A stretch of 48,530 bases of DNA, from contig JAFXVA010000015.1 of the NCBI GenBank assembly GCA_017534965.1, forward strand, positions 1-48,530, written 5' to 3'. This DNA comes from Elusimicrobiaceae bacterium. Its GTDB lineage: Bacteria > Elusimicrobiota > Elusimicrobia > Elusimicrobiales > Elusimicrobiaceae. The position numbers and the translations under genes were made by a program. Positions 14,536 through 46,421 of this stretch are shown here, piece after piece. The stretch's first letter is position 1. Each line of letters opens with the position of its first letter. The notes under the pieces were generated by a model. It did no database searches. It was not told the DNA's origin and worked only from the letters and a program-made list of their open reading frames with translations.

Positions 14536-14536
14536 C

Positions 14537-19030: not shown

Positions 19031-22000
19031 ATGGCTTTCATAAACAATAAATATAAACAAAACATGAATATAATAAGCGGAAAAAATTTTTTAAAAAAGG
19101 GTGTAAATATAATTATAGCCCTTATTATGTTATTTAATTTAACTTCTCCCATACTAGCAGTTCAAAACAATATAAAACAACAAAAAGAAGAACAAATATT
19201 TAAAGAATTAAATAAAACTTTAGAAGTAGAATATAAAAAGAAAGCAGAACCTTCTACAGAAGACATAATAGATTTATGCCTAAAAAAGAATAATAAGGCA
19301 AAGTGTAGCGAATATGTAAATTTAACAGAAGCTCTTTTTTTAGAAGCTGTAGATAAATCAGAAAAAGAACAAGGCAAAGTAAATAACAAAGAAGAAGAGT
19401 TTTTGCCTATATCTAAAAAAGAATATCTCAAACAACTAGCCCAAAATACACAAGAAGAATATAAAAATAAAACAGCGGAAATAGAAGAAGAATTTAAAAA
19501 ACAAAATCAAAAAGTAGAGCAAGAATATAAAAACATAAATATTAAGTCTAAAGACTATGCCAAGTATGCTTTTAAGAAATCAGATTTAAACAATTGGAAA
19601 AAAGAAAGTTTGTCGGATTTAGCTGCTTGGAAAAAAGATATCTTATCAAACGGCCAATATTATTACGACGAATATCTAAAAGAATTTGAAAAGAAAAAAG
19701 CAGAATACGAAGCAGACAGAGAAGAAGTTTTTAATGCTTATCTAAGGGAGATGGCTACAAATCTTATAGCAATATATGATAAAAAGGCCCCTTATTCTAA
19801 ATTAAAAATGACTAATCTGTTGGTTGTTTTATTATCAACAGAAACAGAAAAATCAAAAATTTTTACAAAAGAACAAAGAAGCAAAGTTTATAGATTTTTA
19901 AAAGAGATAGTTTCACCCAATGGCTTAGAATCACGTAATCCGTGTCGTTTTCATTTAAGACAAAGAACGGAAGCAGAATTAGATGCGCATAAGGCCTATC
20001 GTGATCACTTACAAAGAATAGAAGAACAAACCCAAGGGACTCTTTCAGCACGGGATCAAATAGCAAAACAAAGCCGTCCCTTTGAACAAAGCATTTTAAA
20101 TGAAACAAAAGCTCCTATTTTAGATTTTGTAGATGAAGATGCCTGCCAAGCAGCATTTTCTGCTTTAAACGGCTTATCCTTTTTTAAAGGTTGGGATATG
20201 TCAAATGTGGCAATGTTTATGCTACAAAACAGCTCTGAACCAATAGCAGACCAAGCTTTGCTTATGGGAGCAAAAACCTTAATAGAAACAAACAGATTAG
20301 ATTATTTCTATGTGTTACAGAGTAATCTTGTAAGAGAAGCAAATAAACATGTAGAAGAAGATTTAAAATTCAAAGAAAAAATGTTCTTTAATGACAGATT
20401 TTATAGAACACCTTATATTTATTCTCGTTACACACAAGAAAATGGCGGCGGTGATGCTTGGCAAGATATAGCCAAAATGCTTTCCAAAGAAAAAACTTCT
20501 TTAAGTAAACAAGTTCAGCAACTGATATTAGACCATTCTGTTTATTTCTCAAGTAGCCCCAATTATTCAAAAACTCAAATTTATTTTAGACATAATATCC
20601 CGTTTATATATGGCCTTTTAATAAATAACCCTGGGATAATAGATAATTTTGTGCCTAATAGCGCAATTTTTGACGAAGAGGCCGCAAAAGGATATTCTTA
20701 TAAAGGACACCCAATATTTATTCAATATTTTGATGACCGGGCAGATCTCTTTATAAAAGATTCAGAGAAAGGTAATTTTTATCTTGCAGATCATCTTGAC
20801 CTATACTATGATGACGGAAGCGGCTATGCAACTATAAAAGTAGGAGCTTTACGCAAAAACATATTTGAAAACTATAAAAAACATAAAGGAACAAGTATAG
20901 CAGAATATAAAAAATATATAGCTTCAAAGAACTTAAAAGCTTCAGCCGTATATGCTCAGGCCTTTTATGAGGCAGACTTCGTAGATTTAACATTAGAAGA
21001 AAAATTGGCCCTAGATGCTGCTTTGGAAAAGAAATATCCTCATCTTAAAAAAATAAGTAAAAATCATAAAGCGAAATTAGCAAAACACAGAGATAACTTA
21101 AATTTAACAACAGGCATTGTAAATATCATAGATGTAGGTTTAACTTTGTGGTGTGTTACGGATATTTATAAAGCTTTTAGATGGGGCGCAAAAGGTATAA
21201 AGGCCTTAAGAACTTTAATTACGGCAGGGAAAACAACGGCCTCTTTTTCAACTGCCAGAAAAATGGCTTTCTTTAGAAATTTAATAACGGAAAATAAAAG
21301 AGTTTTATCAGTTCATAGAAACTTAAAGAAAATAAAAAGTATTGAAAGCAGAATTGTAAATAAATTCCCTACTTATAGAAGGATGAAAGCTCTTTCCTAT
21401 CTAGCCGAAAAGAACGGAATGAATACCATAAATTATATGGTTCATAATATGGCCTATAATGAAGGTAAAACTCTAGCCCGTAGAGGTAAGGTTTTAAAAG
21501 TAGAAGGAAGCACAGAATTTTTTAGTAATAAGCATTATGTAGCAGGAAAACATAAAGATATTTTTAGAGTAAAGAAAGATGTAAAAAGAGCCGGGGAAAT
21601 AGGCGTTAGCGAACTTGGAGAAGGGGGGCAAGTTGTAAGTTATATAGATAAAGCAAAAGTAAAGATATTTAAAGATTATACCGATGATTTTATAAAAGGA
21701 CAAGAAGGAGTTTTAAGAGAAGAAGCAAAATTACTACCTAGCACAGAAAAGAATAGGCCAAATTATAAAAATATGCTATCTTCCAGCAAAGAAACAACCT
21801 TGTTGCCAAGAGAATATTTATACGATGAAGAATACTCTAAAATATTACCTTTTGCTCAAGATAGAAACTATACTCAGGCCTTTAAGATAGGCGATGAGGC
21901 CTATGCAGGGTTAAGAAAAGAAGGGTATTATGTAATGAATACCTCAAGTGGGGAAGTGTTTAATGATTTTGCCTTCCACTTTGACGGCTATTTAAACAAA

Positions 22001-25000
22001 AATAATTTTCTTGGTGGGTTAATTGTTCCTTCTAAAAATTTTGCCGGAACTAAAACTGCCACAAAAGCCGGAGACTTTTTTGCACAAGAATCTTCTTTAT
22101 TATCGGTTTTAAACCCACAGACAAATTTATTTATTCCCGGATTAAATACTTTAAGCAGGGCCACAAATCCTTTAAAGATATTAACCCCGACAACACTTTT
22201 TACTCCTAAAATACCTAAATTATCTTTATATTTTGAGAATGTCTTCCTTGGAACAAAATTATTTAATCTCAAACTTAATAATTTAAGAAAACCAACAGAA
22301 ATTATAACTAGACCTAATACTTTAGCAAGTAAAGATAGAACTTTTATTCCAGGGGAGCCTTTTCCGGAAATAAAGGCAGAACCTAACTATAGTGAGTTTG
22401 ATGATAAAGAAATGCAGCCTGTAATTATGGCGATAAACTTAAATATCCTTCTTGAAGAACTTAGAAAATATGCTGAAAAAACTATTTTAACAGATCACGA
22501 AATTACCCTTTATAATAATATCGCAAATAATATTTATAAGGTGTTAGATAATCTGCCGGAGGCCCATAGTAAATATATGGCAGCTTTGGAAGATACAGAT
22601 TTCTTTACCGGCAATATTCCTTTAATAACTTTTGAAGGGACAAATGTCGAAACGATAAGACCTGCAACTATAGAAGGGGATGTTCTTGTTTATTCCTTAG
22701 CCGGAAAAGAGAATTATAAAAAATTTATTGCTGATAAAATAAAACATCTTTCTTCTTTTGGTAAAGAATACACTATTTATCTTTCTATGCACGGAGATAA
22801 AAATGCAAAATTGGCTATTTCTCATAATACTTATACTTCTCTAAATGAAATATTGGATATAGTAGCAAAAAATAAAGGCAAGGAAACTGTCAATATTATT
22901 ACTTCTGCCTGTCATAGCGGAGCAGCTTTAAGCACGGGTTTAGCAAGAGAGGGAATAAATGTTTTACTTCTAAGTGGGCGTAATGATCTTTGTTATACAA
23001 GTGATATGCAATTTGTAAAGATAAATGATTTGCGTTCTTCCTATGTGGAAGCCGTAAGGAACAGATATTATGGTTCTTATTTAATATATGATGGGAAATT
23101 TTTTAATACTTTAGTTGATGCTAATTCATATTTAGAAAAGGGGGATAAGAGAAAAGAAGAATTATCCTTACTTAGACAAATGTATTTTAAAGAAAATATT
23201 TTTGGCGATATTATTTATCAACTTTTAATTAATTTTCCTAATCATTTTAAAACACCCTTTTTGCCTTTTATTAAGTTATATTACTTAAATATCACGCCCA
23301 GTGTTTTCAATCCTATCTATAATATTTATGAACACTTAGATGATTATGTGCATATTTTAGACCCTATAAAACATCAGTGGGAATATGTCGTAAATAGTTA
23401 TGATAAATCGGGCGCTTTAAAAAAACAGGAATCAGTTGTTATTGAAGAAGGTAATAGCGAAATTAATAATTTTTTAACAGATATCGCTCAAAAAGAATTG
23501 AAAAATAATTTCCCTAATTGGAATTATATTGAACAAAAAATACCTTTCCAGAGGAGTTTTCCTTTATATCCACATACGGATGATGAGTTTTTACACCTAA
23601 ATAGTTTACCTAAATTAAAAAAAGATTTTCCTGTAATTCCCACGCAACATCTTAAAGAGAAAAAGGCCTTTATAATAACGAAAATAAATAAAAATATAGA
23701 AAGATTAAAAGATTTAGATTTATCTTCTTTAAGCAGTAAAAAAATAGAGGCCTATCAGGAAGTCTTTAATGCTGTAAAAGAAATTGCCAAAGCTCCTTCT
23801 AAAGCAACGATACCGCAACTACAGCATATTGAAAAAATGTCTTATTTGCTTAATATGGATAAACCGGTTTTGATTCTTAAAGGAGAAGATTTAAACATCC
23901 TTTTACCGGGGCATATCCCTTCTAATAATTTCCGTATATTAAATTTATCAAAAGAAATGAACCATAAGCAAAGAATTGGCATGGAAATAAAAGATTTTGC
24001 CAAAGTTTTTGATAAATTTACTGTTTGGGTAGATATGCATGGCTCTGTAGAAGGGTCTATACTCGTTTCTAAAATTAATGGGGTAAAATCTTATACAAGA
24101 ATTGCCGAAATTGTAAGAATAATAGAAGCTAATAAAGCGGGCAGTAAAGTTGATTTGATTTCAGCCAGTTGTCATGGCGGGGCAGGTTTTATTTCAAGAT
24201 TCAAAGATAGTGATATAAATATTTTAATTTTGAGCGGCACCAATGAGGTTTGCTATCAAACAGATAAAAGCTTTTTGGTTATAGATAATTTACCCGAAAC
24301 TTATTTGAATGCTGTAGAAGCAGGAAGATACGGCTCTTATTTGATTTATAATGGTAAGGTTTATAATCCTCTTCAAGATGCTTTAAAAAAGGCAAAAGGA
24401 AATGAAGAATTATCTTCAGAACTAGGAGTTTTGGGAGATATTTTCCTTAGAAAAGACTCTTTTGGAACAGAACTTGGTAAAAACATTTTTAAACTTTTGG
24501 TAAATTTTGAAAATTATAGACTTAATACTAAGTTTGAAAATTTTGAACTTACAAAATTTAACAAATTAGATCTCTTAAAGGATTATGAAATACCTTTTGT
24601 TTTCAATCCGATATTAAAAGAAAATACTTCCGCTTCTTCTTATTTAACTAAGAGAAACGGCAATTGGAAGTATGTTTTTAGAACTTTTGACAAAAAGAAT
24701 AATATAAGTTTAGAGAAGGGTGTTTCCTTTAATAAATTAAATAGTGAAACTGCTGATTTTATTTATGAAAGTAGCAGAAAGAGATTTCCCGGAATAAAGA
24801 AAGAAACATCTAATTTAGTAGAACCCAAAGGCCAACCTAATGATTTAATTTTAATCAAAACTCCTAAAACTATTACAAAATTGTTTAAAGATTACGGGTT
24901 AGAAGATAATTTTGCCGGCAGACTTGCCAATGTTTGTTTTGAAGGAGAAAAAGAAAAATATAATCCTGTAATTTTAGAAAAAATTAAGGAGTTTTTAGTT

Positions 25001-28000
25001 GCCGGAGTAGAGCCAAAATATATAGATAATATGATTGTTGCTCTTTCTGATAGTAATGGCTTTTCTTTAGATCTTTATAATAGGGCAATAGCTTTACATA
25101 AAAAACATAATATACCTTTACCTTTAAGTGCTTATTTTGTGAATACGGGGCTTTCTGTAACAGGATATGATCCTGAAATTTATGATGCCCTTGATAAATT
25201 ATTGGAAAACAATTTTGATTTTGCGAAAACAAAAACTTCTTGGGATGCTTTGGTGGCCTCTAAATTATATGAAAAAGAAATAACTACTTTGGGTATTGAA
25301 AAAGTGGATATTCTATCGGCCTTTTCTAAAGGCGGAAGAGATTTTGATGTGGATGCTTGGAATAATTTAATTTATATCTCTAAACAAACAGAAGGGGAAT
25401 TTAGTTCTTTTCATTATGCTATGCACTATTATCTTGGTAAGGATGAAATATTAAAACAAATGCCGGATATTATTGGTGTAGAAAATGTTGCCAAAGCTCT
25501 TAAAGAAAATTATGTTCGCTATAGTTATGTGTTTCCAAATTTACAAAAAGTAATCGGGGCAGAAAATATGCCTTTGTTAAAAGAGCAAATTGCCAATATG
25601 CCTTTAGAAAAGCAATTAGAAATAATAAATACGTTTGCAGCTATGATTAATGTCAGAGAGACAATTTTAAGCCCGGTAGAAAAGAAAAAATTAATAGAAA
25701 AAATTTCTGATCCTCAGGCCTATAAAGAACAAGTAAACCAAATCGTATTTAGAAAACTTGGCTGGGACTATAGTGATGAGTTAGGCAAAATATTTGATTT
25801 TTCTTCTAATAAATATCTTATGCATATTTTAAATTCTCAAAATAAGTTTTATGTCAATTTGAATTTGCTTTATCAAATCATAAGGGATAATCAGGGTAAA
25901 TCTGTAAGCCAAATTCTTGATGAATTACCGGAAAATAAAAAGTTTGCCGAAATGTGTGCCGAACGGGGCATAGATTATCAGGCCTGGCGCAGTTATGATC
26001 CTAAAGATTATATAACAAGAAAAGTGCTAATTAACGGCGGAAAAGAACCTATAACAAGGATGCCGATTACGGTTCGTAAAGTTAATATGGATAATATTCC
26101 GCAAGCTTTGATTACAGGTAATGAATCAAGATCTTGCAGAAGTGTAGGCCGCGGAATTTGTGGCGAGGCATCCCCTAATTTAATAAGAAACAAAATGGTT
26201 CAACAAGTTGAAATTGTAGTAGAGGGCAGGGCTGTTGGAAATGCTTTAATTTATCTTGCAGAGGTTGACGGGCAAACTTCTATAGTAGTTGGTTCTTTTG
26301 TTAAAAAACCGCCTTATTTTTCTTATGAAATAACAAGACTTGTGCTTGATTATGTTAGACATATAAGGGACTCTGTTACAAATAAAAATATACCTATTTA
26401 TTACAGCAATTTTCTTCCGATAAATAATCATTATAAATTCCCTCTTATAGAACATCAAGTTATGTTAATTGGAGATGGTTTTAATGAAATATTTAATAGT
26501 TTTACCCATCAGTTTGTTATGCCTTATACAAAGCAAGTGGATAAAGTAAAACTTTTTACTATTGATAGTCCTAAACCTTTGAAAAAAGATGATCTTTCTA
26601 AAGAAGATATACTTGCTATTTATGCTAAGAAAAATGTCTCTTCAGAAGAGGCCGGACAAGCTCTTTTAGAACTTTGTTTTGAAGGCGATCATAAAATTTT
26701 TAACCCTGATGTCTTAGAAGCAGAAAAATATTTGCTTGATATGGAAATAGACCCCCGTTTTGTAAAAGCAATAATGGAAAAACTTTCTATTAATGGTTAT
26801 TTTTCTAAAGAATTATATGATAAAACTTTAGAATTTGCTGATAAATACTCTATTAGTAAACTTACAGCTGCTGATTTAATAGGGCATTGTGTTGAAGAGG
26901 GGAAGTTTAGCCCTAAAATTTATAGTAAACTTGGTCTCTTATTTAAGGATAATACGATAACTTTTTCAAAAGTGAGTTTTTTAGAAAATTGTAAAATTAA
27001 TGGCGTTTTTAGAGAAGATTTGTTTGATAAAGGCTTAAAAGTAAGCAAAGTATTTGATAGATACACACCTCAAATAATTGCTGATTTTACAGACGCTCAG
27101 GGCAATTTTAATGAGGAATATTTTGAGGCCGTTTATGAACTTCTTATAAGAACGCAAGATCTTTTTGCGACACGCTATGATGCTATTAAAACTTATGTCC
27201 TTTCTAGTGATGTTATTCAAAATGCTTTTGATTTGTTGGGAACAGAGATGACTATAAAATATATTTCCTTAAACAAAGATCGTTACTTAAATATTTTTGG
27301 TAATATCCTTGATTCCATTGATAAAGGAAATATGGCACTTTTAAAAGAAAAACTTGCTCCTTTACCTGAAGTGGAAAAAATAAAAACTATAACTATGCTT
27401 GCCGGGACTGTAAACAAAAAGAACAGTGTTTTAGGTAAAAAGGGTATAACGGATTTAATAAATAAGGTTTCAGAGCCGGAAGTTTTTAAAGAAGAAATAA
27501 ATCGCCTTGCTTTTAAACAACTGGGCTTGGAATATTCTGAGGAAATGGCAAAAATATTTGATTTTGCCTCTAGCAAATATATTTCCCGTATTTTAGAGGG
27601 TAATGCTCCCTTTGATAACCATTTGAAGAGTTTATTTGAATCTTTAAAAGCCAATATAGATAAACCCATACACCAAAATTTTGACCTTATACCTGAAAAT
27701 CAGGCCTTTGCCAAAATCTGTGCTGAAAACGGCATAAATTATCAAGCTTGGCGCAGTTATGACCCCAATGATTTTATTGCAAGGAGTGTTTTAGTAAACG
27801 AGGGTCGCAGTCCTATAACAAGAGATAATCTTCTTGTGCGCAAAGTGGATATGGATAATGTAATAAAAGCACTTACCAGCGGTAATGAGTCGGGTGCGTG
27901 CAGAGCTGTTGGCAGAGGTGTGTGTAAAGATGCTGCCCCCGAACTGGTTAAAAATAAAATGGTTCAGCAAATTGAAATCTTGCGCGGGAATATAGTTGTG

Positions 28001-31000
28001 GGAAATGCTTTAATTTATCTTGCCAAAGTTAACGGCGAAGTTTCTATTGTTATAGGTTCTATAATAAAAAAGAGTCCGCGTTATATTTCCACGGAAATAA
28101 ATGATCTTGTGGCTGATTATGTTCGCAAAATCCGCCAAGATATTGGCAGACCCGATATTCCTATTTATATGAGCAGTTATCTTAAAGTACCAAATCCTTA
28201 TTCTCAGGATTGGGATAATGTCGTTCTTCTTGGAAGCGGCGATAAGAAAATATTTAACAGCTTTACCCATAGCTTTGATGTGCCCTCTATGAATAAAACA
28301 AACAGAGTCTTATTATATCAAGTAGATGAAGGCCTAAAAGGGCAAGGTGATTATGTTAATACGGATTATTCTTCTAAGCCGACCAAAAAAGATATGTTAG
28401 CGCAAACAGCCCAAAAAATAGAAGAAAAATCTTATCAAGATGCCGTAAGAAAGGTAAAAAATCAAATCAAAAAAGCGGGTATTAAATCTGCCGGGGCTTT
28501 GGCTATTTTGTGCTTTGAGGGGGAAGAATTAACTTTTAATCCTGCTGTTTTAGAAACAATAAAAGATCTTGCCAAAAAAGATATTGAAGGCGTTTTTATA
28601 ATTGAGATGATAAAAGCCCTTTCCCCAAATAATCATTTTGAGCCGAAACTTTATGAAAAAGCTTTAGAGTTATATAAAACTAATCACAATATGAATGAAA
28701 GTATCAAAATGATTAAGGGTTCTATGGAAAAGGGGGTTTTTAATCCTAAAATTTTAGAGAAATTTCAAGAATTGCAGGGGTATTATTTCCCGCTTTCGGA
28801 ATATGACTTTATGAAAGCCTGTTTTGTAAACGGCTTTTTTAGAGAAGATTTATATGATAAAGGAATAAGCATCGCTAAAGAATTTACCAGCAGCACGCCT
28901 GAAATTTTAAAACTTTGTAAGACTGAGGAAGGCGCTTTTGACGATAAACTTTTTGAAAATTTTGTAACTTTAGCAAAAAATACTGCCAAAAGTTTCAGTT
29001 TTGAAGATCCCTTGCTTGAATATCTTATTGCCGGTGAGGGTATTAAATTTTCCCTTGAAGTTATTGGCGTTGAAAATACGGCTAAAGCAATCAATTTAAA
29101 TAAGGCGCGCTATAAAAATGTATTTCTTAGTCTTGCTGATAATATCTATAAAGAAAACATAGCCTTGTTAAAAGCCCAACTCGAACCTTTGCCTTTAGAA
29201 GAAAAATTATCTGTTCTTAACCAGTTATCAGGTATTTTAAATAAGGAAAAAATACCTTTAACAATACAAGAAGAACGCGAGATTATTAGCCAAATTTCCG
29301 ATAAAGAAAAATTTAAAGAAACTATTAACCGCCTTTCTTTTAAATATTTTGGCTTTGATTATATGCCAAGCCTTGCAAAAATATTTGATTTTTCAGGAAA
29401 CAGATATTTGCCACTTTTATTTAAGGGAAATAATAAATTTAATCTTGATTTTAAAAGAATTTATACCGAAATTAAACAACTTCTAACAAAATCTTTAAAA
29501 CAAGGCGAGCCAAAAAATATACACCAACTTTTTGATGAAATACCGGAAAATAAGGCCTTTGCTAAAATCTGCGCAGAACGGGGTATAGATTATCAGGCGT
29601 GGCGCAGTTATGATCCAAATGATTTTATTAAAAGAGATGTTTTAATTAGAAGCAATAATGCCTCTACAACCAAAAAAGAACTTATAGCCCGTAAAGTAGA
29701 TATGGATGAGGTTATAAAAGGGCTAACAACCGGTAATGAATCAAAAGCCTGCAGAGCCGTTGCCTCAGGTGAAAATTGCGAAGCCGGCCCCGAACTTGTA
29801 AGAAATAAAATGGTTCAACAGGTGGAATTATTGGATAATAAGGAACCGGTTGGTAATGTTCTAGTTTATCTTGGCGAAGTTAACGGGCAAACTGCTATTG
29901 TAATGGGAACTATAATGAAAAAAGGGGTTTATGACACCCACGAAATTGATGAACTTTTTATAGATTATGTAAGGGCTATGCGCAGTAAAATAGGGCGTCC
30001 TGATATACCAATTTATATGAGTAGAATTTTTTCTATTGATAATGTAAAAAAATATCCCGTAAAAGACTATCAGGTTAAATTGCTTGGCTCTGGAAATAAT
30101 AGAATTTTTAATAGTTTTGCCCATGAGTTTGAAGTTCCTTCAGATAGTAAGGTTAATACCATTGAACTTTATAAAGTAGATGAAGGCCTAAAAGGGCAAA
30201 ATGATTTTGTTAATACGGCATATCCTGGAGCAAATAATATTTCTTCTAATAATTCTTTATTACCTGTAAATTTTAATTTTTTAGATAAATTAAAATTTTT
30301 GACTAGCCCTGTTTTTAAAATTAAAGTTTTTAAAGGGCCAGAAGCGCTAAGGAAAAGAGGCACAGGTTTTTATATAAAATACCGCAATTTTCCTTTTATT
30401 CTAACAGTTGGGCATTTGTTTAAAGATGCTGATTTAAACAATATCAGAGTTTATAATAATTTAGGTTTTAGCGAAAAGGCGGAATTATTAAATATCAGTG
30501 ATAAATCCGATTTGGCTGTTTTGGCCTTGCCGCAAGGCGTTTTAGACCGCTTTACTCCGTGGACTTTATCTTTAAAAGAACCAAGAGTTGGAGATGATTT
30601 GCTTTCAATCGGTTATCCTAAAGCAAAAATTAAAAAAACAAGTAAAGTGGAACTTTTAAGTAGGGATATGTATCTTACCAGCCCAGAGAGAAACGGAAGT
30701 ATTTTTTATCAGCATGAACAAGGGAAAATTTATCTTGGGGCAAGTGGCAGCCCGCTTAGTAATATAGCAACACCAAAAGAACTTGTTGGGGTTAGCTGTG
30801 CTGTTAATGAAAAGGCCCATAAAGCAATAAGCGTGCCTTTGCCTCAAATTAGAACTTTCCTTGGCGAAACTATTAAAAAAATTCTTTTTACACCTGATTT
30901 AAGCTCAAAATTTTTGCCCTTATATCCCGCTTTTGCCAAAAATTATGAAAATGTTGTAAATAAATTTATTTATCCTAGTGAACTTGCAAAAAAACCATCT

Positions 31001-37102: not shown

Positions 37103-37140
37103 GGGACTTTAGGCCTAGAAAAAGGTGGGTCTAAAGTCTC
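37103..37140 (+). promoter_or_regulatory. Hairpin/palindrome before giant gene 2
   Basis: Arms 37105-37115 and 37128-37138 (11 bp, one G-U; 13 bp if extended) enclose a 12-base loop and end two bases before the -35 box. Arm differences from the copy at 18947-18984 are compensated on the other strand, so pairing is conserved. Confidence 0.65.
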
Positions 37141-37169
37141 TTGTTATTTCAGACGAAAAACCCTATCAT
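37141..37169 (+). promoter_or_regulatory. Sigma70-type promoter of giant gene 2
   Basis: TTGTTA (37141-37146), 17 bases, TATCAT (37164-37169), the same layout as giant gene 1. The expected transcription start coincides with the ATG at 37176, so a leaderless mRNA is predicted. Confidence 0.75.
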
Positions 37170-37175
37170 ATAAGT

Positions 37176-40100
37176 ATGGGGAAACTCTTATTAAAAATAT
37201 CTAAAAAAATAACAGCACTTGGGCTTGTGCTGATATTATTATTTAATATTAGTAGCGAGGCCTTTGCCGCTTTAACTCTGCCCCAAAATGAAGAGCTAGC
37301 CCAAGAAATAAAATCTGTCTTACAGGAAACTTTTGCCGCGCAAGAAACAAGTAATTATAAAGAGTGCGTAAACAATAATTCTGTATCCGCTTGTCAAAAT
37401 TATCTAAGAGATCTTAAAGCCCAATTTTCCAAAAGTGTAACTAATGCACAAAAGAATAATACAACTATTGAAAGTAAAAAAAGTTATAAAGAATACGAAA
37501 AAGAATATAAACAGGCAATAGAAAAAGAATATCAAAGAGCTACTGAAGAAATAGAAAAAGAAATAAGACAGGCCTTGTGGTATAGCGATTTAAGCTTTGA
37601 TACTGCCAATCATTTAAACTATCTTGAAAAGCAAAGCAAAGAAGAGTTAAAAGCTTGGAAAGAAACAGAAGAAAAGAATATAAAATCCAGCTATGTTAAA
37701 TATGAAAAAGATTATCAAACTTGGCAAGCAAAAGAAGCTAAACTGCAAGAAGAGGCCGGTAAAAAATATTTAAAAGCAGAAGCAAAAAAAATAATAGCCG
37801 CCTATGAAGCAACTGATAATGTAAAAGTTAAAAGATTTGCCAGAGAATTATTAGTAGTTTTATTAAACAGCGAAGAAAAACCCGGCGAAATAATAGAAGA
37901 GCGTGCCAAAGTAGAACAAATACTACTTGCTGCTTTAGAAAATAGACCTTGTGCTACTACAATGGGCGGTAAAACCCTTACAAAAGAGGGGGCAGATAAA
38001 TATATCGGCTATGATAAACCGGGAGTCTATCCGAGTTTGACTAGAGAAGATTGGAACATAATAGAAGCCGGCTATAAAGATGTTGAGGCCTGCCAAAATG
38101 CTTTTATTGCTCTTGAAGGTTTAGGATATTTACAGGGCACCTCTCAGGCCGTATCAAAAGTAGAAAAATTTATAGAAGAAAATAGCAAAGATATTGCCGC
38201 AGGGGATAGTTTAATAAACGGCAGCGCAGTTTTGCTTAAATGGAAATCCTATCAAACTCTAAAAAAATATATAGCAAAACAATTTAGCCAAGAAAAAAAT
38301 AATGAAGGAAAGGGCGTTGGCGGCTTTGGCGGTATATCCGAAAAAGTGGCCTATAATGGCAATTATCTTGGTAATGTTTCTATTTGGACCCAAAGAGAAG
38401 ATGGCAGTAATGCTTGGGAAGATTTGGCAGATTTACTTGCTAGCGAAGGTAGCGCGCAAAGTAAAGAAATTTTAAAGAGTGCTGTAAGCAGTTGTAAAGT
38501 AGTAAAAGAAGTTTTAGGCAAAGATAAGCTGGAATGCCAAACGATAATGCCGTTTTTATATGGGGCTTTATTACATGCTCCAAAAGTAATGAATGAGGCA
38601 AAACCTTATCAGGAACCTATACCCCAATATAAAGAATATCTAGACGCGCAAGGCAAAGCAAGACAAGTAACCCAATCAGAAATAGACGGGATAAAACGTC
38701 GTAATGCTTATATAGAGAAAACCTTTAATGAAAAAATAAAAAGTTATGGGGCAAATATATCAAGTGGGCTGGCAGGCTTTTTATATAATTTAAAATTCAA
38801 TGATATGCCTGTAGATAAAAAGATGGCACTTGATAATAAACTTGCTAAAGTTTATAGCAATATTGCGCCATATACTAAAGGCAGTGCAAGATACACCAAG
38901 TTAAAAACAAACAGAGCCGTTGTTTCAATTTTTAAATATGTAGGTATAGCAATAGATGTCGTTCTTACCTTTACATTGGTGGGAGATATTGCCAAAGGGG
39001 CACTAGGAGCAAGTGCGCTGGTTCGTGCAAAGAATTTATTGAAAGGGAAAAATGCTTTAAGTATAGCCCAAAGAGCAAATATCTTGCGCCAAGTGGCCTT
39101 TATAAGGGAAGGTTTTAAATTAAGAAGATTCGGGCGTAATTTTACCGCAGGTATAGTAAATAGTGCTAATATCGGCAGAAAAATCAATGCAAGTGCGTAT
39201 TTAGCCCAAAAGAACGGGATGAATCCGATAAACTATATGCTACACAATATAGCATATCAGCGTGGTAAAAATATTGTTCTTAGAAATAATATTTTAAGAG
39301 TGGAAGGAAGCAGAAATTTCTTTAACAGCAACCATTATATACCCGAAGTTCACGGCGATATCTTTAGAATAACCAGAGATGTTAAAAGAGCAAGTAAGAT
39401 AGGGGTAAAAGAACTTGGAGAAGGCGGGCAAGTTTTAAGTTATATAGATAAAGCAAAAATAAATATTTTTAGAGATTATACAAGAGATTATATAAAAGGG
39501 CAGGAAGCAGTATTAGGCAGTGCTCAAGCAAGCAAAGCGGAAGTAATGAGCGGGCAAACAAAGTTACTGTCAAGAGAATATTTATATAGCAGAAAATATA
39601 AAGATATTTTACCCTTTGCCCAAGACGGACAATTTAGCGGAACTTTTAAGGCCGGAGATAAAATCTATGAAGGGTTAAGAAAAGAAGGGCTTTATGTTAT
39701 AAATAAAGAAACAGGGGAAGTATATAACGATTTTAGATTTAATTTTGATGGTTATTTAAATAAACATAATTTGCTTATCGGCAGAGAACTTGGCATAAGA
39801 AAGCCAAAAAATCTTGTCTTAAGCAAAGTAATAAATTCGGGAGAAAAAGCTAATTTTGCGCAAAATATTAGTTTGATTAAAGAGCCAAGTTCTTTAATAG
39901 TTCCTTCTTTTGTTAATAATAATACGACGCTTGCTTTAACTGTGGGAACACCTTTTATCCCGAGTATTTCCACTTTATTAAGCCCTTTTTATGCCTTGAA
40001 TATTAAAAATAATTTTTCCTGGTTAAATACAAAAATATTAGGTAAAGATGCTTTGACGGAATATGTGGGGGAAACTTTTAAAGCTGAATCTTTAAAACCT

Positions 40101-43100
40101 ATTCCTACGCAAGATAATGCTCCCAATCACGTTTTGATAGAGACTTTAAATGATATGCTTGATCGTCTTAATGATTTTGCCACGGGTAAAGAATTAACAG
40201 CTAAAAAACTTGCTTTCTACGATAAATTAAGTAAAGAAATTTATGCCTTATCTGAAACCTCTGAAAAAGTCACTTGGGAAAAACTAAATAAAGTTTCCGA
40301 AAAAATTGATATTTTGAGTTCAGAAAAACCGCTATTTGTTTTTTATGGTTATAATCTTGATAATATTCTTAGACCGCAAACTCTACCGGAAGAAGAATTT
40401 TTTGTATTTGATTTAACTGAATCTTTAGACTATAAAAAAGATTTTGCAGAAAAAATAAATTTATTATCTTCAATATTTGATGAATACACGATATATACTA
40501 TAATTCATGGCTCCAAAAATGGATATTTGGCTTTGAATAAAGATAAACAAATATATATTGATGATATAGCCGATCTAATAGATAAAGCTAAAGGCAATTC
40601 TATAGTTAATTGGGTTTCCGGCTCTTGTCATAGTGGAGCAGGGGTTACCAGAAAGATAATTAAATCAGGGTTAAATATTCTTTTGCTTAGCGGGGTTAAT
40701 GATACTTGTTTCAATAGTGATGCAAAATACGTTAGAATAAATGATTTGATTTCTTCTTATTATGATGCGGTTAGAGATAATCGCTATGGCTCTATTTTAA
40801 TCTATGACGGAAAAGTTTTTAATAGTATAAAAGATGCGAAAAAGGTTGCTTTAAAAGAAGAATCTTTACCTGAGAAATTAAATTATCTAGATGACATATT
40901 CTTTAGCAGAAAACCCTTAGGAATAAATCTCTTTAATTTCTTAAAGACTTTTCCTAAATGGGAAATAAAAGGCGATTTTATACCTACAATAAACTTTGAG
41001 AATTCACCTGCTTTCCCATTTGTTTTGGCTTCCAATAATGTTTTTACTTATATTGCCCCCGATTCTGATAAAGGGGGAGCTTTTGCTTATATGTTAGACG
41101 GAGATGTCTTTAATTCCGGAAAACAAATTAAGTTAAAATATACCATATCTGAAGAAGGCAATGAAACAAATAATATAATTGCGAGAATAACAAGAGAATT
41201 TTTGGAGAAAAATTTTCCTAAATGGAAATACGAGCCAAACTCTCCTGTAAATTCTTTTCTTTCTCCTGTGAAATTAAAGGAAGTTTATGTATCTGAGCCA
41301 CTTAACAACTCCGCAGGCACTCTAAGAATAAACGGGAATATATTGCCTCAGCTTGATATAGATTATGGTTTTGAAGGTAAATATTTAAAACCAATCCCGA
41401 CTGAAAATATCGCCCCTAATAAAGTTTATGATATAGTAATTCTTAACGATATGTTAAAGGCGTTAAATGAAATTTCCGCTGGTAAAAAATTATCTGCTAA
41501 AAAACTTAATTTTTATAATAATTTGAGTAAAGAAATTTATGCTTTAGCTAACAATCCTGATAGATTAAGTATGAGTGAAACGGCGGAGCTTTATCAGAAA
41601 GTTGATATGTTAAAGGCAGAAAAACCCTTATTTGTTTTCCACGGATATGATTTTGATTATGACGATGTTTTAATACCTGAAAATGTTAATCCTAAAGAAA
41701 TGTTTGTTTTTGATTTGACCAAGACATTTGATTATAATAAATATCTTGGTGAAAAAATAAAGTTAATATCTTCTGTATTTGATGAATACACGATTTATAC
41801 TTTAATACACGGCTCCCAAAAAGGTTATTTGCGTTTAAATACAGATAAAAAGGCAACAATTGCCGGCTTTGCCGATATTATAGATAGAAACAAAGGCAAT
41901 TCGGTAGTTAATTGGGTTTCCGGCTCTTGTTATAGCGGTGCGGAGATGACACCTAGTATTGTAAAACCAGGACTAAATATTCTTTTAATCAGCGGGGCTA
42001 ATGATGTTTGCTTTGATAGTGATATAGAATTTGTAAGAGTTAATGATTTGATTTCCACCTATTATGATGTTGTTGATGCAAAAAGATATGGCTCCGTTTT
42101 GATATATGATGGACAGATATTTAATAGTATAAAGGATGCTAAGAAAAAAGCTATCGGAGAAGAAACTGATGAGCTAAATGCTTTAAATGAAATATTTTTT
42201 AACAGAAACAAACTCGGAGAGAGTATTTTTTACCTTTTAAAACATTTTCCTAAATGGCATATGTCCAAATTCTCCTTACAGAAATTAAAAAGCATTGAAG
42301 GTATTCCTTTTGTTTTTAATCCCAAAAGCAATATTTTTAATTTCCGCACTTATATCACACCGCCTAATATGGAAGATGGTCATTGGATTTATGAAATTGA
42401 AAAGCATAATGATTATGGTCAAATCATATCTAATAAACAATATTCTTTAATTGAAACAGGCAGTAAAACCCACAATCTTTTACGGGATATTACCAAAGAA
42501 ACTTTAGAAAAAAGATTTCCTAAATGGAAATATGCACCCTTATCATCTTTAAATACTAAATTGCCGATAAAACTTAAAGATTCTCCTTTAGAAACAAATA
42601 TAGAACCTTTTGAGGAAGAATATAATATGGCTTTACAAAAGGCCTTAGAAAACTCAAATAAGATTGGTTGGTCCCCTGATAAAATAAGAGAATTGTTTGA
42701 AGTCCAAAAAGATAGCATAAAGACAACAATAGAAGTAATTGGCTTAAATGCTTTATTGTATTCGTATCAGGGAAAAATACCTGAAATACTTAATGTTATT
42801 CTTCTTTCAAATTTGGTTAAATTTAGATTTTCTCCAAATTCTTATGAACTTTTACTTCAGAAAATTAATCCAAAACAAAGTCAAAAATATAAAGAACTTA
42901 CCGAAGAAATGAATCGGCTTAGAGAAAAAGCAAAAAATGATCCTTCCTTTAGAGAAGAAAGAGACAGAATAACTTCTTTACAAAGAAAAACGGCTAAAGG
43001 AGAAGAATTATTAGTTCAAGATGCTTTGGAAAAATTTAAATTAATCGCGGGTATTGCAAAAAATGATACCAAAGTGGCAGAAGGTTTAGTTGAATATATT

Positions 43101-46100
43101 AAGCCAAAAACAGAAAGCTATGAGAATATTTGGAAGATAAAAACTAAAAATGCAATTTTTAAACAAATGAAAGTTTCTTTGTCGGATGATCTGCTTGTAA
43201 AATTAAATATGGATGATTATTCTAATTTTTCGTCTTTATTACTTACTAAAAAAGAAACCCAAGAAAATTTAAGAGAAATATTTAATTTGATTAATATAAA
43301 TAAAAATAAAGAGGTGTCCGCTATTTTAGAAAATTTATCCTGGAATAGAAAAACAAGAAAAATGTTTACTGATTTAGGGATAAATTGGAATGCTTGGACA
43401 AAAGCTGATCCTAATAATTATGTCCAAGAAACAATAAGAATAGATATTCTCCAAGAGAAAAAAGAATTTATTGAAGAAGTTAATAAATATGCAACAATGT
43501 TGTTAGAAGATTATGAAGAAGTAAAATTTAAAGCAATAGGCAGTAAAATCAAAATAGAAGACGGCGCCCTTCTTTTTGAAGGCCAAAAGGTGGAAACTTT
43601 TCCGCAAGCTGTAAAAGTTGTTTCTGCTTTAAGAAAAATTATAGTTTCTTCCGAAAATCAAAAACAATATGCCTCTACGCTTGTTTCTGAATTTATAGAA
43701 ACCTTGCCCCATATGGCAGATGTTTTATCTACTATTGCAAAAGAAAATCAAATTATAAAAATTCGTCTGGCGGATACTAATAATATCGGCAATATGCTTG
43801 CTTTAGGCGGAAAATCGGCCTGTTGTAGAGCACTAGGGAGTATTCATGAAGAAGCCGCGATATCTTTAATTACAAATAAAATGTCAACGGCTTTTGAAAT
43901 ATTGGCCGATGATAAAATTGTTGGTAGTGTAATGGTATATTTGACAGCTGTTAATGGTGACCTCGCTTTAGTTCTTGGCACTTTAGAAACAAGGTCTGTA
44001 TATTCTAAAAACGAAGCTATCAGTAAAGCTGTAGTAAATTTTGCAAGGAAATTTGCTGTTTCTATAGACAAACCTAATATCCCTATTTATATGGCTACTA
44101 CAGGACAGGAGAAAACGATGCAGTTTTTTGCCAATCCTCAAGATATGCCGCCTGCTACAGCACAATTTTTTAATAATGCAGATGATTCTAACGCCTATAA
44201 CATAAAACCTTTAGGTAAAATAGGCAAATATCCTATCTATTTAAGTTATAGTCTTGCTTCTAAGACAAAATGGGATAATTTGAATACAAATAATTATTTA
44301 TATCATTTGAATTATCCGTTTGAAGAAAGAGAAAACGTAAAATCAATTTTATATAATAGGCCTCTTTCTTTTATTACAGGATATTTTAAATCTTTATTTG
44401 TGCCGTCTTTAGGTGTAGTTTCCGCTCCTTTGGCTTTTATCATGACTGAGATGAAAAAATTTAAAGCCACCCCTAAATTATGGGCTACAAAAACAGCTGA
44501 AATGTATTTAAGAGAGCATGCTTTTTCCCAAACAGATATAGCTTATGTTATTAAGAATTGTTATGTGAATGGGAAGTTTAATTCTAATTTCTTTGATCTT
44601 TTTGTTAAAGGATATGAGATAAAAAAAGATGTTAATTTTGCTATGGTAGCTTTTAATTCTTCTGTAGTAGGGGAGGGGGTTTTTGACTATCAAAGATATG
44701 CAACAATTTATAGTATTGCAAAAAGAGTGCCACAAATGACTTATGAAGAAATTTCCAGTTATGCTTTAGCTTCTCAAAAAGAACTTGAAGCTTTGTTCTA
44801 TGTGGCAGATAATTTCCCAACAATAATACCTTTTGAAATTATGAATCTTGCAAGCAATAGAGTTACTTTTAAACCGGGGACTTTAAACTTTAATAATTAT
44901 GAAAAAATTATTGGTTTATTAAAGAAAGGTTTCTCATTTGATACTGTAAAGAAGATTTATACGAGTTGTTTAGATTCAAACAATACTTGGGATGAAGCAA
45001 TGTTTACCAAAATTGATAATGTTGCCAAGGCCGCTATTAAAAGAAAAGATATCTTTTTATCTGCCAAAAATAAGCAATTTACTGATAAAGATGTTAAAGA
45101 GTTTATTTATGGCTTATCTTCAGAAATAAAGGCAGCTTTTGATGTCTGCGACGAATCAACTTTAATTGCGGCCATGGGTTATAAAATGGTTAAATTTGAA
45201 AATTTTGTTAAAGCGGCCGCTCGGTTAAGATTTAATCTTGATTTTGCAAAATCAAAAGAGCAATTTTTAGAAATTTTTTACCCCGGTAAAACTGCAAAAG
45301 TTAGAAGATTAGAAAATAAAATTATAAAACTTAAAAGCAAATTCTCTGATACACCGAAAAGTGAATTACAAGATTTAAAAAATGAAATTAACACTTTTAC
45401 AAAGCAATTAAGAACTTTGCTTGAACAAGAGAAGACCTTTTCTCCTCAAGAAAAAATTGAAATGATTAATATTATGAGTAATTTTAATGAAGCTAAAGAG
45501 TTAAAAGATTTGCTTAAAACGGCTAAACAAGTAAAAACAAAGGGTATGGAAGTTTGGAATAAAAAAATATTTGAATTGCTTTCTTCGTATTTAGGTAAAA
45601 CTTATAATATAAAAGTAGAGGATAAATTACACCTTCTTACAAGCCCATACTTAATGAGAGTCTTTAAATCTGTTATAGGCGAAGATTTTAATACGAAATT
45701 CCAAGAGCTTTTGGTGCTTTTATCGCGGGAAGATTTTGGCAAATCTTTAGATAAACTACATCATAATATTGCAACTAAAAAAGATTTTGAATCTTTGGGG
45801 CTTAATTATGAAAAATATACAAATCCTAATACTGCTTTATCCAGAAGTTTCTACGACGGCAATAATTTGGTGGAAATAAAACCGGTTAATATGAGAGATG
45901 TTTCAAAAAGTTTATTTTTGGGTAATGAGTTCAGTTCTTGTACTGCTATGGGGAGTTTTTACGATCATTATGCGATACCTTATATTATGAATACATTTGT
46001 CGGGGCGATAGAAGTTGTTGTAAATGGCAAACCTGTTGGAAACACTATGATTTACCCTATAATTAATGAAAACTTTATTTTTGATGCTGAAAATAATTAT

Positions 46101-46421
46101 ACAGGCCAATTTAATAATGAAATTGCTCTTTTGATAGATGACTTGAAAATTGTTGCCCCTTATAATAAGGGAAAATATTTGCAGGAAGTTGCCCGCTTGG
46201 CCGAAGATATTGCAAAAGATATTGGCATTAAAGAGGGCAAAGTATATATTTCCGATTCCAATATTATTGGTTATGATAAACTAGATATGGGGTCAACAGC
46301 AAAATTTTATTTAATTGGTAAAAATTTAGATCCTATTTGGTTAAATGCCACTTATACCGATGCAAAAGCCGGTTTTACGGAATATGTCGGAACATTTGTT
46401 TCCTCAGATAAAATTAAATAA
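37176..46421 (+). CDS. Giant secreted multidomain protein 2 (caspase-like x2, repeats)
   Basis: About 3081 aa, a paralogue of giant 1. Start: ATG 37176, where a clean signal peptide begins (MGKLLLKISKK, hydrophobic core, cleavage near EAFA at residue 31). A GTG start at 37125 lies upstream of the promoter and is rejected. Order by residue: signal peptide; Lys/Glu-rich helical region with cysteines matching giant 1; hydrophobic stretch near 587-613; conserved unknown block 675-860; tandem clan CD peptidase-like units 982-1370 (His1111, Cys1151) and 1407-1803 (His1545, Cys1585). One helical/Cys-box module follows (G-I-N-W-N-A-W-T near 2068, Cys2216-Cys2217), then the C-terminal module shared with giant 1 (Gly2916, Cys2922) to the stop. 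It lacks the trypsin-like, ART-like and TPR segments of giant 1. The function is unknown; extracellular proteolysis or contact is inferred. Confidence 0.85.
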   Translation: MGKLLLKISKKITALGLVLILLFNISSEAFAALTLPQNEELAQEIKSVLQETFAAQETSNYKECVNNNSVSACQNYLRDLKAQFSKSVTNAQKNNTTIESKKSYKEYEKEYKQAIEKEYQRATEEIEKEIRQALWYSDLSFDTANHLNYLEKQSKEELKAWKETEEKNIKSSYVKYEKDYQTWQAKEAKLQEEAGKKYLKAEAKKIIAAYEATDNVKVKRFARELLVVLLNSEEKPGEIIEERAKVEQILLAALENRPCATTMGGKTLTKEGADKYIGYDKPGVYPSLTREDWNIIEAGYKDVEACQNAFIALEGLGYLQGTSQAVSKVEKFIEENSKDIAAGDSLINGSAVLLKWKSYQTLKKYIAKQFSQEKNNEGKGVGGFGGISEKVAYNGNYLGNVSIWTQREDGSNAWEDLADLLASEGSAQSKEILKSAVSSCKVVKEVLGKDKLECQTIMPFLYGALLHAPKVMNEAKPYQEPIPQYKEYLDAQGKARQVTQSEIDGIKRRNAYIEKTFNEKIKSYGANISSGLAGFLYNLKFNDMPVDKKMALDNKLAKVYSNIAPYTKGSARYTKLKTNRAVVSIFKYVGIAIDVVLTFTLVGDIAKGALGASALVRAKNLLKGKNALSIAQRANILRQVAFIREGFKLRRFGRNFTAGIVNSANIGRKINASAYLAQKNGMNPINYMLHNIAYQRGKNIVLRNNILRVEGSRNFFNSNHYIPEVHGDIFRITRDVKRASKIGVKELGEGGQVLSYIDKAKINIFRDYTRDYIKGQEAVLGSAQASKAEVMSGQTKLLSREYLYSRKYKDILPFAQDGQFSGTFKAGDKIYEGLRKEGLYVINKETGEVYNDFRFNFDGYLNKHNLLIGRELGIRKPKNLVLSKVINSGEKANFAQNISLIKEPSSLIVPSFVNNNTTLALTVGTPFIPSISTLLSPFYALNIKNNFSWLNTKILGKDALTEYVGETFKAESLKPIPTQDNAPNHVLIETLNDMLDRLNDFATGKELTAKKLAFYDKLSKEIYALSETSEKVTWEKLNKVSEKIDILSSEKPLFVFYGYNLDNILRPQTLPEEEFFVFDLTESLDYKKDFAEKINLLSSIFDEYTIYTIIHGSKNGYLALNKDKQIYIDDIADLIDKAKGNSIVNWVSGSCHSGAGVTRKIIKSGLNILLLSGVNDTCFNSDAKYVRINDLISSYYDAVRDNRYGSILIYDGKVFNSIKDAKKVALKEESLPEKLNYLDDIFFSRKPLGINLFNFLKTFPKWEIKGDFIPTINFENSPAFPFVLASNNVFTYIAPDSDKGGAFAYMLDGDVFNSGKQIKLKYTISEEGNETNNIIARITREFLEKNFPKWKYEPNSPVNSFLSPVKLKEVYVSEPLNNSAGTLRINGNILPQLDIDYGFEGKYLKPIPTENIAPNKVYDIVILNDMLKALNEISAGKKLSAKKLNFYNNLSKEIYALANNPDRLSMSETAELYQKVDMLKAEKPLFVFHGYDFDYDDVLIPENVNPKEMFVFDLTKTFDYNKYLGEKIKLISSVFDEYTIYTLIHGSQKGYLRLNTDKKATIAGFADIIDRNKGNSVVNWVSGSCYSGAEMTPSIVKPGLNILLISGANDVCFDSDIEFVRVNDLISTYYDVVDAKRYGSVLIYDGQIFNSIKDAKKKAIGEETDELNALNEIFFNRNKLGESIFYLLKHFPKWHMSKFSLQKLKSIEGIPFVFNPKSNIFNFRTYITPPNMEDGHWIYEIEKHNDYGQIISNKQYSLIETGSKTHNLLRDITKETLEKRFPKWKYAPLSSLNTKLPIKLKDSPLETNIEPFEEEYNMALQKALENSNKIGWSPDKIRELFEVQKDSIKTTIEVIGLNALLYSYQGKIPEILNVILLSNLVKFRFSPNSYELLLQKINPKQSQKYKELTEEMNRLREKAKNDPSFREERDRITSLQRKTAKGEELLVQDALEKFKLIAGIAKNDTKVAEGLVEYIKPKTESYENIWKIKTKNAIFKQMKVSLSDDLLVKLNMDDYSNFSSLLLTKKETQENLREIFNLININKNKEVSAILENLSWNRKTRKMFTDLGINWNAWTKADPNNYVQETIRIDILQEKKEFIEEVNKYATMLLEDYEEVKFKAIGSKIKIEDGALLFEGQKVETFPQAVKVVSALRKIIVSSENQKQYASTLVSEFIETLPHMADVLSTIAKENQIIKIRLADTNNIGNMLALGGKSACCRALGSIHEEAAISLITNKMSTAFEILADDKIVGSVMVYLTAVNGDLALVLGTLETRSVYSKNEAISKAVVNFARKFAVSIDKPNIPIYMATTGQEKTMQFFANPQDMPPATAQFFNNADDSNAYNIKPLGKIGKYPIYLSYSLASKTKWDNLNTNNYLYHLNYPFEERENVKSILYNRPLSFITGYFKSLFVPSLGVVSAPLAFIMTEMKKFKATPKLWATKTAEMYLREHAFSQTDIAYVIKNCYVNGKFNSNFFDLFVKGYEIKKDVNFAMVAFNSSVVGEGVFDYQRYATIYSIAKRVPQMTYEEISSYALASQKELEALFYVADNFPTIIPFEIMNLASNRVTFKPGTLNFNNYEKIIGLLKKGFSFDTVKKIYTSCLDSNNTWDEAMFTKIDNVAKAAIKRKDIFLSAKNKQFTDKDVKEFIYGLSSEIKAAFDVCDESTLIAAMGYKMVKFENFVKAAARLRFNLDFAKSKEQFLEIFYPGKTAKVRRLENKIIKLKSKFSDTPKSELQDLKNEINTFTKQLRTLLEQEKTFSPQEKIEMINIMSNFNEAKELKDLLKTAKQVKTKGMEVWNKKIFELLSSYLGKTYNIKVEDKLHLLTSPYLMRVFKSVIGEDFNTKFQELLVLLSREDFGKSLDKLHHNIATKKDFESLGLNYEKYTNPNTALSRSFYDGNNLVEIKPVNMRDVSKSLFLGNEFSSCTAMGSFYDHYAIPYIMNTFVGAIEVVVNGKPVGNTMIYPIINENFIFDAENNYTGQFNNEIALLIDDLKIVAPYNKGKYLQEVARLAEDIAKDIGIKEGKVYISDSNIIGYDKLDMGSTAKFYLIGKNLDPIWLNATYTDAKAGFTEYVGTFVSSDKIK
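40120..41290 (+). repeat. Tandem clan CD peptidase-like unit A of giant 2
   Basis: Residues 982-1370. Contains YTIIHGSKNG (His1111) and NWVSGSCHSGAG (Cys1151), spaced 40, and ends in FPKWKY. It pairs with the adjacent copy; the similarity is high enough to see in the DNA. Confidence 0.75.
41395..42585 (+). repeat. Tandem clan CD peptidase-like unit B of giant 2
   Basis: Residues 1407-1803. Contains YTLIHGSQKG (His1545) and NWVSGSCYSGAE (Cys1585), also spaced 40, and ends in FPKWKY. The residue after the catalytic Cys is Tyr rather than His. More similar to unit A of the same protein than to the units of giant 1, pointing to a within-gene duplication. Confidence 0.75.

What the first reader, a model, noticed from the sequence alone, without database searches (positions are those of the whole stretch)
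19031..46421. Paralogous pair of giant secreted multidomain proteins with no obvious described family
Two genes encode about 5041 and 3081 residues with the same order of signal peptide, cysteine-containing helical region, unknown conserved block, two caspase-like units, helical/Cys-box module(s) and a shared C-terminal module. They differ in module copy number and in one extra cassette. The signal peptides and cysteines are seen directly; export is inferred. Size and architecture match no single named family known to me, so this is the best candidate for an undescribed system.
Basis: partly seen in the sequence, partly recalled or inferred. Interest (0 to 1): 0.88.

Follow-up and report, generated by a model that had tools for sequence, protein, structure and literature searches.

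The report
Giant exported modular protease-fold proteins
Two enormous, export-tagged bacterial proteins are strung together from predicted protein-cutting domains and other parts, belong to a larger family in one group of Elusimicrobia, and carry the same promoter element as many other exported proteins of that group; what they act on is not known.

Summary
Window 19031-34156 (5041 aa, P1) and 37176-46421 (3081 aa, P2) are two intact frames with signal-peptide-like starts and shared architecture. Above curated cut-offs Pfam recognises only an HtrA-like protease in P1, NCBIfam nothing. The "caspase-like" units are supported: His and Cys are invariant in 9 of 9 copies (4 here, 5 in genome G006), and the model of one resembles legumain/caspases. 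The "Cys-box" has a predicted GNAT-type fold with an invariant Cys. The extra cassette is HtrA-like protease, unassigned RGM domain and TPR. The pair is not isolated: its helical N-block occurs in 47 of 340 genomes of the phylum, all in one family, with varying C-termini. A G013 relative is 95% identical to P1 over 321 aa, then ends in unrelated sequence. Both genes carry a dyad-promoter element that precedes 29 of 41 N-block genes of the genus; 55 of 57 elements precede a signal-peptide-like start. I read them as exported, modular, probably proteolytic effectors in a dedicated regulon. Folds are predicted; export, activity and target are inferred. New variant of the known giant-protein kind.

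The parts
18940..19021 (+). dyad plus promoter element upstream of P1 (GG-rich inverted repeat, 8-nt centre, CTTG, then -10-like TATCAT)
19031..34156 (+). P1, 5041-aa giant protein
19031..19162 (+). P1 signal-peptide-like N-terminus (end approximate)
   Evidence: seen directly, hydrophobic stretch ending ILA|VQ
19760..21319 (+). P1 N-block core, helical, two Cys columns invariant in the alignment of 19
21398..22105 (+). P1 domain X, shared with P2 and L046, fold unknown
22487..23629 (+). P1 caspase-type unit 1 (invariant His and Cys)
23726..24913 (+). P1 caspase-type unit 2
26039..26440 (+). P1 Cys-box 1, after a helical stretch
27803..28210 (+). P1 Cys-box 2
29654..30058 (+). P1 Cys-box 3
30284..30967 (+). 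P1 HtrA/chymotrypsin-like serine protease domain, His-Asp-Ser conserved in 5 of 5
31043..31522 (+). P1 RGM domain (unassigned)
31559..31804 (+). P1 TPR repeats (below Pfam cut-offs)
32177..34153 (+). P1 C-terminal helical module ending in Cys-box 4 (33614-34153)
34202..35158 (+). oligopeptide-type ABC transporter ATPase
35155..35937 (+). second ABC transporter ATPase
35934..37079 (+). M20-type peptidase
37096..37177 (+). dyad plus promoter element upstream of P2
37176..46421 (+). P2, 3081-aa giant protein
37788..39128 (+). P2 N-block core, structure predicted
39195..39899 (+). P2 domain X
40188..41384 (+). P2 caspase-type unit 1
41484..42674 (+). P2 caspase-type unit 2, structure predicted
43725..44270 (+). 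P2 Cys-box 1, GNAT-type fold, structure predicted
44451..46418 (+). P2 C-terminal module ending in Cys-box 2 (45822-46418)

Best explanation
P1 and P2 are exported, modular, protease-type effector proteins, one branch of an Elusimicrobia family of N-block giants. Proposed mechanism: a regulator acting at the dyad next to the -35 box switches on a set of exported proteins together. The Sec pathway exports each giant. The helical, possibly disulfide-bonded N-block anchors or presents it. The paired caspase-fold units and, in P1, the HtrA-like domain cut substrates or process the chain. The repeated GNAT-fold Cys-box modules towards the C-terminus bind or modify the target, and the C-terminal tip can be exchanged between species. 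Shown by computation: frames, layout, predicted folds, conserved catalytic-type residues, the shared promoter element and one swapped tip. Inferred: export, enzyme activity, disulfides, the regulator and the target (neighbouring microbes or host material).
For: Caspase units: His and Cys invariant in 9 of 9; in the model of P2 unit 2 most of the caspase part is above pLDDT 80; Foldseek prob 1.00 to legumain and caspases among the top 50; VIA Z 9-10 over about 150-170 residues, mostly 3.3-3.8 A, the tied top row being Raptor's caspase-like domain at 5.9 A. HtrA-like domain: Pfam E 7e-11, profile E 6e-11 to HtrA, triad in 5 of 5. N-block with varying C-termini: HtrA plus RGM, MFS-like, caspase-like by motif, receiver-like. 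Swapped tip: 95% identity over 321 aa, then unrelated sequence in G013. The G013 giant beside the PAS gene has a P2-like (51%) rather than P1-like (24%) N-terminus. Element: upstream of 29 of 41 N-block genes, downstream of 0 of 41. Next start is signal-peptide-like in 55 of 57, control 80 of 215 (Fisher p 1.1e-17). Of ten regulon proteins scanned, four have ankyrin repeats.
Against: No secretion machinery, target or activity was tested. No immunity-like gene follows either giant (gaps to the next gene are 45-48 bp). The Cys-boxes show no acetyl-CoA loop motif by eye (motif recalled), so a catalytic role is a guess. Foldseek E-values for the top 50 were 0.003-0.02, none below 0.001, and pTM of the model was 0.50. 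ARM/HEAT-like matches of the N-block may be generic. The signal-peptide test is a simple hydrophobicity rule, not a trained predictor. The neighbouring peptide-transporter genes fit a feeding role equally well. The element model was not run on genomes outside the family.
Confidence: 0.42

Rival explanations
1. Extracellular digestion system. The giants are surface-bound proteases that cut host or feed protein; the peptides enter through the neighbouring oligopeptide transporter and are finished by the M20 peptidase.
For: Between P1 and P2 lie two oligopeptide-type ABC ATPases and an M20 peptidase. G013 keeps the order on one contig, from a P1-like tail to a P2 start; G006 has the same three genes by eye, followed by an 1817-aa protein instead of a P2. 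Two proteins that look by eye like dipeptide permeases (not scanned) lie on the contig of another G006 giant. Protease folds as above.
Against: Much of each protein is not protease. By eye, many N-block relatives have other neighbours. Exported ankyrin proteins in the regulon and a swapped C-terminal tip are not expected of a digestive enzyme.
Confidence: 0.27
2. Envelope scaffold or quality-control proteins: periplasmic giants in which the protease units mainly process the giant itself, with a structural or stress role.
For: Signal-peptide-like start and no other long hydrophobic stretch in P1; closest solved relatives of the P1 serine protease are HtrA/Deg proteins; 16 proteins of the compared set carry an MFS-like part.
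Against: Uneven distribution within the genus: N-block matches in 13 of 18 genomes (the other five are 64-88% complete), from none to at least five frames. Fast change of architecture is odd for housekeeping.
Confidence: 0.2
3. Polymorphic toxin in the strict sense, with C-terminal toxin tip and immunity partner.
For: One swapped tip after a sharp junction.
Against: No room for an immunity gene next to P1, P2 or the G013 tip: the next genes, ABC ATPase or Fe-alcohol dehydrogenase, start 45-70 bp on. No known trafficking domain in Pfam.
Confidence: 0.08

Closest known systems
Huge proteins of Elusimicrobiota and giant ORFs of Omnitrophota (PMC11573180, PMC10066038; passages read)
   Same: Very long, poorly annotated proteins from host-associated or symbiotic lineages; the Omnitrophota ones are proposed to work outside the cell.
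   Different: The Omnitrophota example read has 42 predicted transmembrane helices, and the paper does not use the word caspase. P1 shows one strongly hydrophobic stretch, its signal peptide. The passages read do not give the domain make-up of the Elusimicrobiota proteins.
Clan CD cysteine peptidases (legumain, caspases; also SAVED-CHAT)
   Same: Predicted fold; invariant His-Gly and Cys.
   Different: No meaningful sequence-profile hit in the PDB and none above cut-off in Pfam; placed in tandem inside giants with signal-peptide-like starts.
HtrA/Deg serine proteases
   Same: Chymotrypsin-type domain with His-Asp-Ser.
   Different: One cassette inside a 5041-aa chain, followed by an RGM domain; no PDZ match.
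GNAT acyltransferase fold (NatD, AAC)
   Same: Predicted fold, VIA Z about 10 over 142-154 residues.
   Different: Invariant Cys; no Q/R-x-x-G-x-G/A loop visible (motif recalled).
Polymorphic toxin systems (PMC3482391, search listing only; features recalled)
   Same: Conserved body, exchangeable C-terminal tip.
   Different: No immunity gene or known trafficking module seen.

Membership tests
Clan CD (caspase/legumain) peptidases | caspase-hemoglobinase fold | tested here: met
   prediction of one unit only: (Z 9-10, about 150-170 aa, mostly 3.3-3.8 A); experiment not done
Clan CD (caspase/legumain) peptidases | His-Gly and Cys catalytic dyad | tested here: met
   invariant in 9 of 9 units
Clan CD (caspase/legumain) peptidases | peptidase activity | not testable with these tools
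   needs assay
HtrA-like S1 proteases | sequence match and His-Asp-Ser triad | tested here: met
   Pfam Trypsin_2 43.4 bits against cut-off 27.6; HtrA E 6e-11; triad in 5 of 5
HtrA-like S1 proteases | PDZ domain after the protease | tested here: not met
   no PDZ among the Pfam matches of the region at E <= 1
GNAT acyltransferases | GNAT fold | tested here: met
   prediction of one box only: Foldseek prob 1.00, TMt up to 0.60; NatD Z 10.1, 142 aa, 4.1 A
GNAT acyltransferases | acetyl-CoA loop Q/R-x-x-G-x-G/A (recalled) | tested here: not met
   not seen by eye in the six window copies
Polymorphic toxins | exchangeable C-terminal tip | tested here: met
   one case
Polymorphic toxins | immunity gene downstream (recalled) | tested here: not met
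   next gene starts 45-70 bp on
Omnitrophota-type giant membrane proteins | many transmembrane helices | tested here: not met
   hydropathy scan: one stretch in P1, four in P2
N-block giant family defined here | N-block profile A1 | tested here: met
   E 5e-111 (P1) and 5e-127 (P2); both are rows of the profile

The most novel reading that the evidence does not exclude
A whole bacterial family uses one dedicated promoter architecture, a fixed-geometry dyad abutting the -35 box whose arms tend to stay complementary while their sequence changes, to co-express a set of lineage-specific exported proteins. At its head stand polymorphic giants that combine paired caspase-fold and HtrA-fold proteases with a Cys-bearing GNAT-fold module of unknown chemistry. 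Together this would be an undescribed exported-effector regulon of Elusimicrobia.
Probability: 0.35. Interest if true: 0.8.

Novelty: new variant of a known kind. Interest (0 to 1): 0.62.

Why it matters
Elusimicrobiota are reported to be rich in proteins above 5000 aa that received no functional category (PMC11573180, passages read). This gives one such family a domain map, candidate catalytic residues that can be tested one by one, and a promoter element that lists its likely co-regulated partners. If the element is a real regulon, it turns the question of what the giants do into a transcription and secretome experiment.

Tried and rejected
Sequence-profile searches of the PDB gave nothing usable for the N-block, Cys-box, caspase unit or RGM domain; only the serine protease was recognised. 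I first suspected an ADP-ribosyltransferase for the RGM domain from memory of motifs; no search supports it, so it stays unassigned. I also recalled PcfJ proteins for the Cys-box; a PcfJ-annotated Listeria phage protein appears weakly (prob 0.28) in the viral structure search, too weak to use. In the 50 VIA rows shown, the box matched only N-acetyltransferases (NatD, HAT1), which excludes nothing. PHROGs and PADLOC were not searched.

A viral link was tested with the C-terminal module only: 91 stretches in viral contigs matched a pattern, none encoded a relative. Rfam at E <= 1 finds only the tRNA in the window.

The dyad was considered as (a) an RNA hairpin: unlikely, because it lies upstream of an apparent -35/-10 pair and its spacing is nearly fixed; (b) two tandem palindromes: not favoured, within-site complementarity is below shuffled; (c) a recombinase site: the 8-nt centre differs between loci, so not favoured. 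A protein-binding dyad is the simplest reading. Arm complementarity beat all 2000 shuffles in 50 distinct elements, but related elements can produce this without structure. Half-site pattern with up to 2 mismatches: 10 matches in the own genome against 3 for the reversed control. The strict full pattern matches only 2 of 25 genomes, so the wide spread rests on the covariance model.

Counting notes. One search scored at most five candidates per genome and one search printed 150 matches with more not listed, so counts are lower bounds. One search used those 150 (141 after removing overlaps) and 41 N-block matches of the genus, after dropping second pieces of the same frame. Seven of the 29 positives were in the training alignment. 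One search used 60 of the 91 rows: 26 were duplicates or opposite-strand copies, and 5 were left out (L099, L166, L141, L173 minus, L101 minus). Looked at later, two of those five (L099, L101) precede signal-peptide-like starts and three have no ORF found. Three of the 60 had no ORF found. Of the two misses among 57, one (L167) is cut by a contig end and the other (L155) seems to start upstream of the ORF chosen. Eleven of the 60 trained the model; without them the count is 45 of 46. The 37% control rate includes membrane proteins and possibly other giants.

Full report
What is there. The window is contig C33 of a 1.32-Mb genome, 96.5% complete. Two long frames, P1 (19031-34156, 5041 aa) and P2 (37176-46421, 3081 aa), are open and coding-like. 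P2's first 727 codons against sister genome G013 give dN/dS 0.147; a 321-codon piece of P1 gives 0.38 at dS 0.067. Both begin with a basic stretch, a hydrophobic stretch and an A-x-A-like end. Pfam at E <= 1 gives only Trypsin_2 above its cut-off, in P1; NCBIfam gives nothing above cut-off.

Architecture. blastp shows P1 58-1959 against P2 27-1802 at 30% and the C-terminal modules at 54%. In order: signal peptide, helical N-block, domain X, two caspase-type units, helical region with Cys-box (three copies in P1, one in P2), then in P1 only the cassette HtrA-like protease, RGM domain and TPR, then the shared C-terminal helical module that ends in another Cys-box.

Folds. A model of P2 1437-2345 with 19 aligned rows has mean pLDDT 77 and pTM 0.50; most of its caspase part is above 80 and most of its Cys-box above 75. 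Foldseek against the PDB lists GNAT acetyltransferases and legumain/caspases with probability mostly 1.00 but E-values of 0.003-0.02 in the top 50, none below 0.001. VIA gives Z 9-10: legumains and caspases over about 150-170 residues, mostly 3.3-3.8 A; Raptor tied at the top; NatD over 142 residues at 4.1 A. The other units were not modelled. His and Cys of the caspase units are invariant in 9 of 9 copies, four in the window and five in G006. The Cys of the box is invariant in the six window copies and aligned in three more distant sequences, two of them close to each other. The N-block model has mean pLDDT 65; fragment residues 291-570 are mostly above 75 apart from 361-380. Its matches are ARM/HEAT-like (VIA Z about 10 at 5 A), which can be generic for helical repeats. 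Domain X is not modelled with confidence.

Family. The N-block profile A1 matches 47 of 340 genomes of the phylum, all in the window's own family, three genera. At least four genomes of the genus hold five separate frames (one search list). C-terminal parts differ: MFS-like (16 proteins of the compared set, four of them rows of that profile; Pfam MFS matches are below cut-off), HtrA plus RGM (L046, L101), and caspase-like motifs, with a receiver-like end in L054 (not modelled). The caspase unit A4 is found in 3 of 90 family genomes (G000, G006, G008), including a further 4512-aa frame in G006. The Cys-box A3 is found in 5 of 340: G000, G006 and three genomes of other families, two of them inside frames of 9927 and 10906 aa. 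No relative of the C-terminal module was found in viral contigs.

Exchange of parts. G013's fragment of P1 is 95% identical over 321 aa and then switches to unrelated sequence with its own stop. Third-position divergence there is 4.7%, against 14.5-15.4% in the adjoining ABC genes and 28-36% in M20, PAS, polymerase and P2, which suggests recent transfer or conversion. The G013 giant next to the PAS gene is P2-like at its start, 51% against 24%. Contig ends in G006 and G013 fall inside giants, so these are fragments.

Promoter element. Upstream of both giants lies a dyad of nearly fixed length, GG-N-C-WWW-R-G-N-CC-Y-A, 8 nt, T-R-GG-N-C ... C-Y-CTTG, followed by a -10-like box; for P1 and P2 TATCAT lies 17 nt after TTGTTA (read by eye). 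A model trained on 11 copies matches in 17 of 18 genomes of the genus at E <= 0.05 and 56 of 60 genomes drawn from the family at E <= 0.001; weaker hits in other genera may include unrelated hairpins, and no genome outside the family was searched with it. Of 41 N-block matches in the genus, 29 have it within 2.5 kb upstream on the same strand (7 of these trained the model) and 0 have it downstream. Of 57 elements with an ORF found 55-180 bp on, 55 have a signal-peptide-like start, against 80 of 215 control ORFs (p 1.1e-17). Of ten regulon proteins scanned, out of fifteen read, four are ankyrin-repeat proteins and six have no Pfam match above cut-off. Arms are complementary more often than in any of 2000 shuffles (50 distinct elements). 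One literature search bears on such an element in this phylum: 439 papers held at least three of four terms, and none of the six listed (best matches first) mentions Elusimicrobi*.

Interpretation. The predicted folds, catalytic-type residues, modular exchange and the promoter shared with other exported proteins fit exported effector-like proteases best. A protein-feeding role is the main rival, because oligopeptide transporter ATPases and an M20 peptidase sit between the two genes here and in G013, and the same genes (by eye) follow the P1-like giant in G006. Export, activity, disulfide bonding, regulator and target are all inferred.

Known context. Elusimicrobiota are reported among the bacterial phyla most prone to proteins above 5000 aa, without assigned function (PMC11573180, passages read). 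Omnitrophota giants are described as few-domain proteins, many with transmembrane helices (PMC10066038, passages read), and another report mentions an extracellular giant with toxin-like structures in a related superphylum (PMC12057145, passages read). Searches for giants (4 papers), caspases (10 of 14 listed) and secreted proteins (7 papers) in this group listed no paper whose title or abstract start describes this family; bioRxiv and most subscription papers are not held. So the kind is known and this family is, as far as searched, a new variant.

Noticed in passing
L040, L041, L047-L053, L056, L098, L105-L108 (C-terminal parts): Sixteen proteins of the compared set, most with an N-block, end in a region weakly resembling an MFS transporter, with unusually few strongly hydrophobic stretches.
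   Followed up: partly
L054:875-7366 (-) and relatives L055, L057-L059: N-block proteins with caspase-like motifs; L054 ends in a response-regulator-receiver-like region (Pfam E 2e-4, below cut-off) despite a signal-peptide-like start.
   Followed up: partly
window 12756-19031; L049; L053: A CpXC protein and a poly(A) polymerase gene lie near an N-block giant here and, by similar-looking neighbours (not scanned), in another genus.
   Followed up: no
L079, L081 (genomes G127, G126): Cys-box inside frames of 10906 and 9927 aa, followed by a damage-control phosphatase domain (PF01937, E 2e-20, scanned in L079).
   Followed up: partly
window 14602-18918: A 1438-aa protein with many PAS domains and weak GAF matches but no kinase or DNA-binding Pfam match, directly upstream of P1.
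   Followed up: no
L042:307-5757 (-): An 1817-aa protein with a signal-peptide-like start, after the M20 gene in G006, has the promoter element but no blastp similarity to the giants compared.
   Followed up: partly
P1 residues 3140, 3758, 4386 (window about 28340, 30194, 32078): A short repeat (LKGQxDFVNTAYP-like) occurs three times at module ends of P1 and in no other protein of the set.
   Followed up: partly
L155:7091-7993 (-): A regulon protein with a HELGHT motif, possibly an exported metalloprotease; no Pfam match.
   Followed up: no
L042 and L043 contig starts: Both G006 giants cut by a contig end begin in the same sequence (QKEGVFAHKVNEVA), so the assembly probably broke at a repeat shared by giants.
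   Followed up: no
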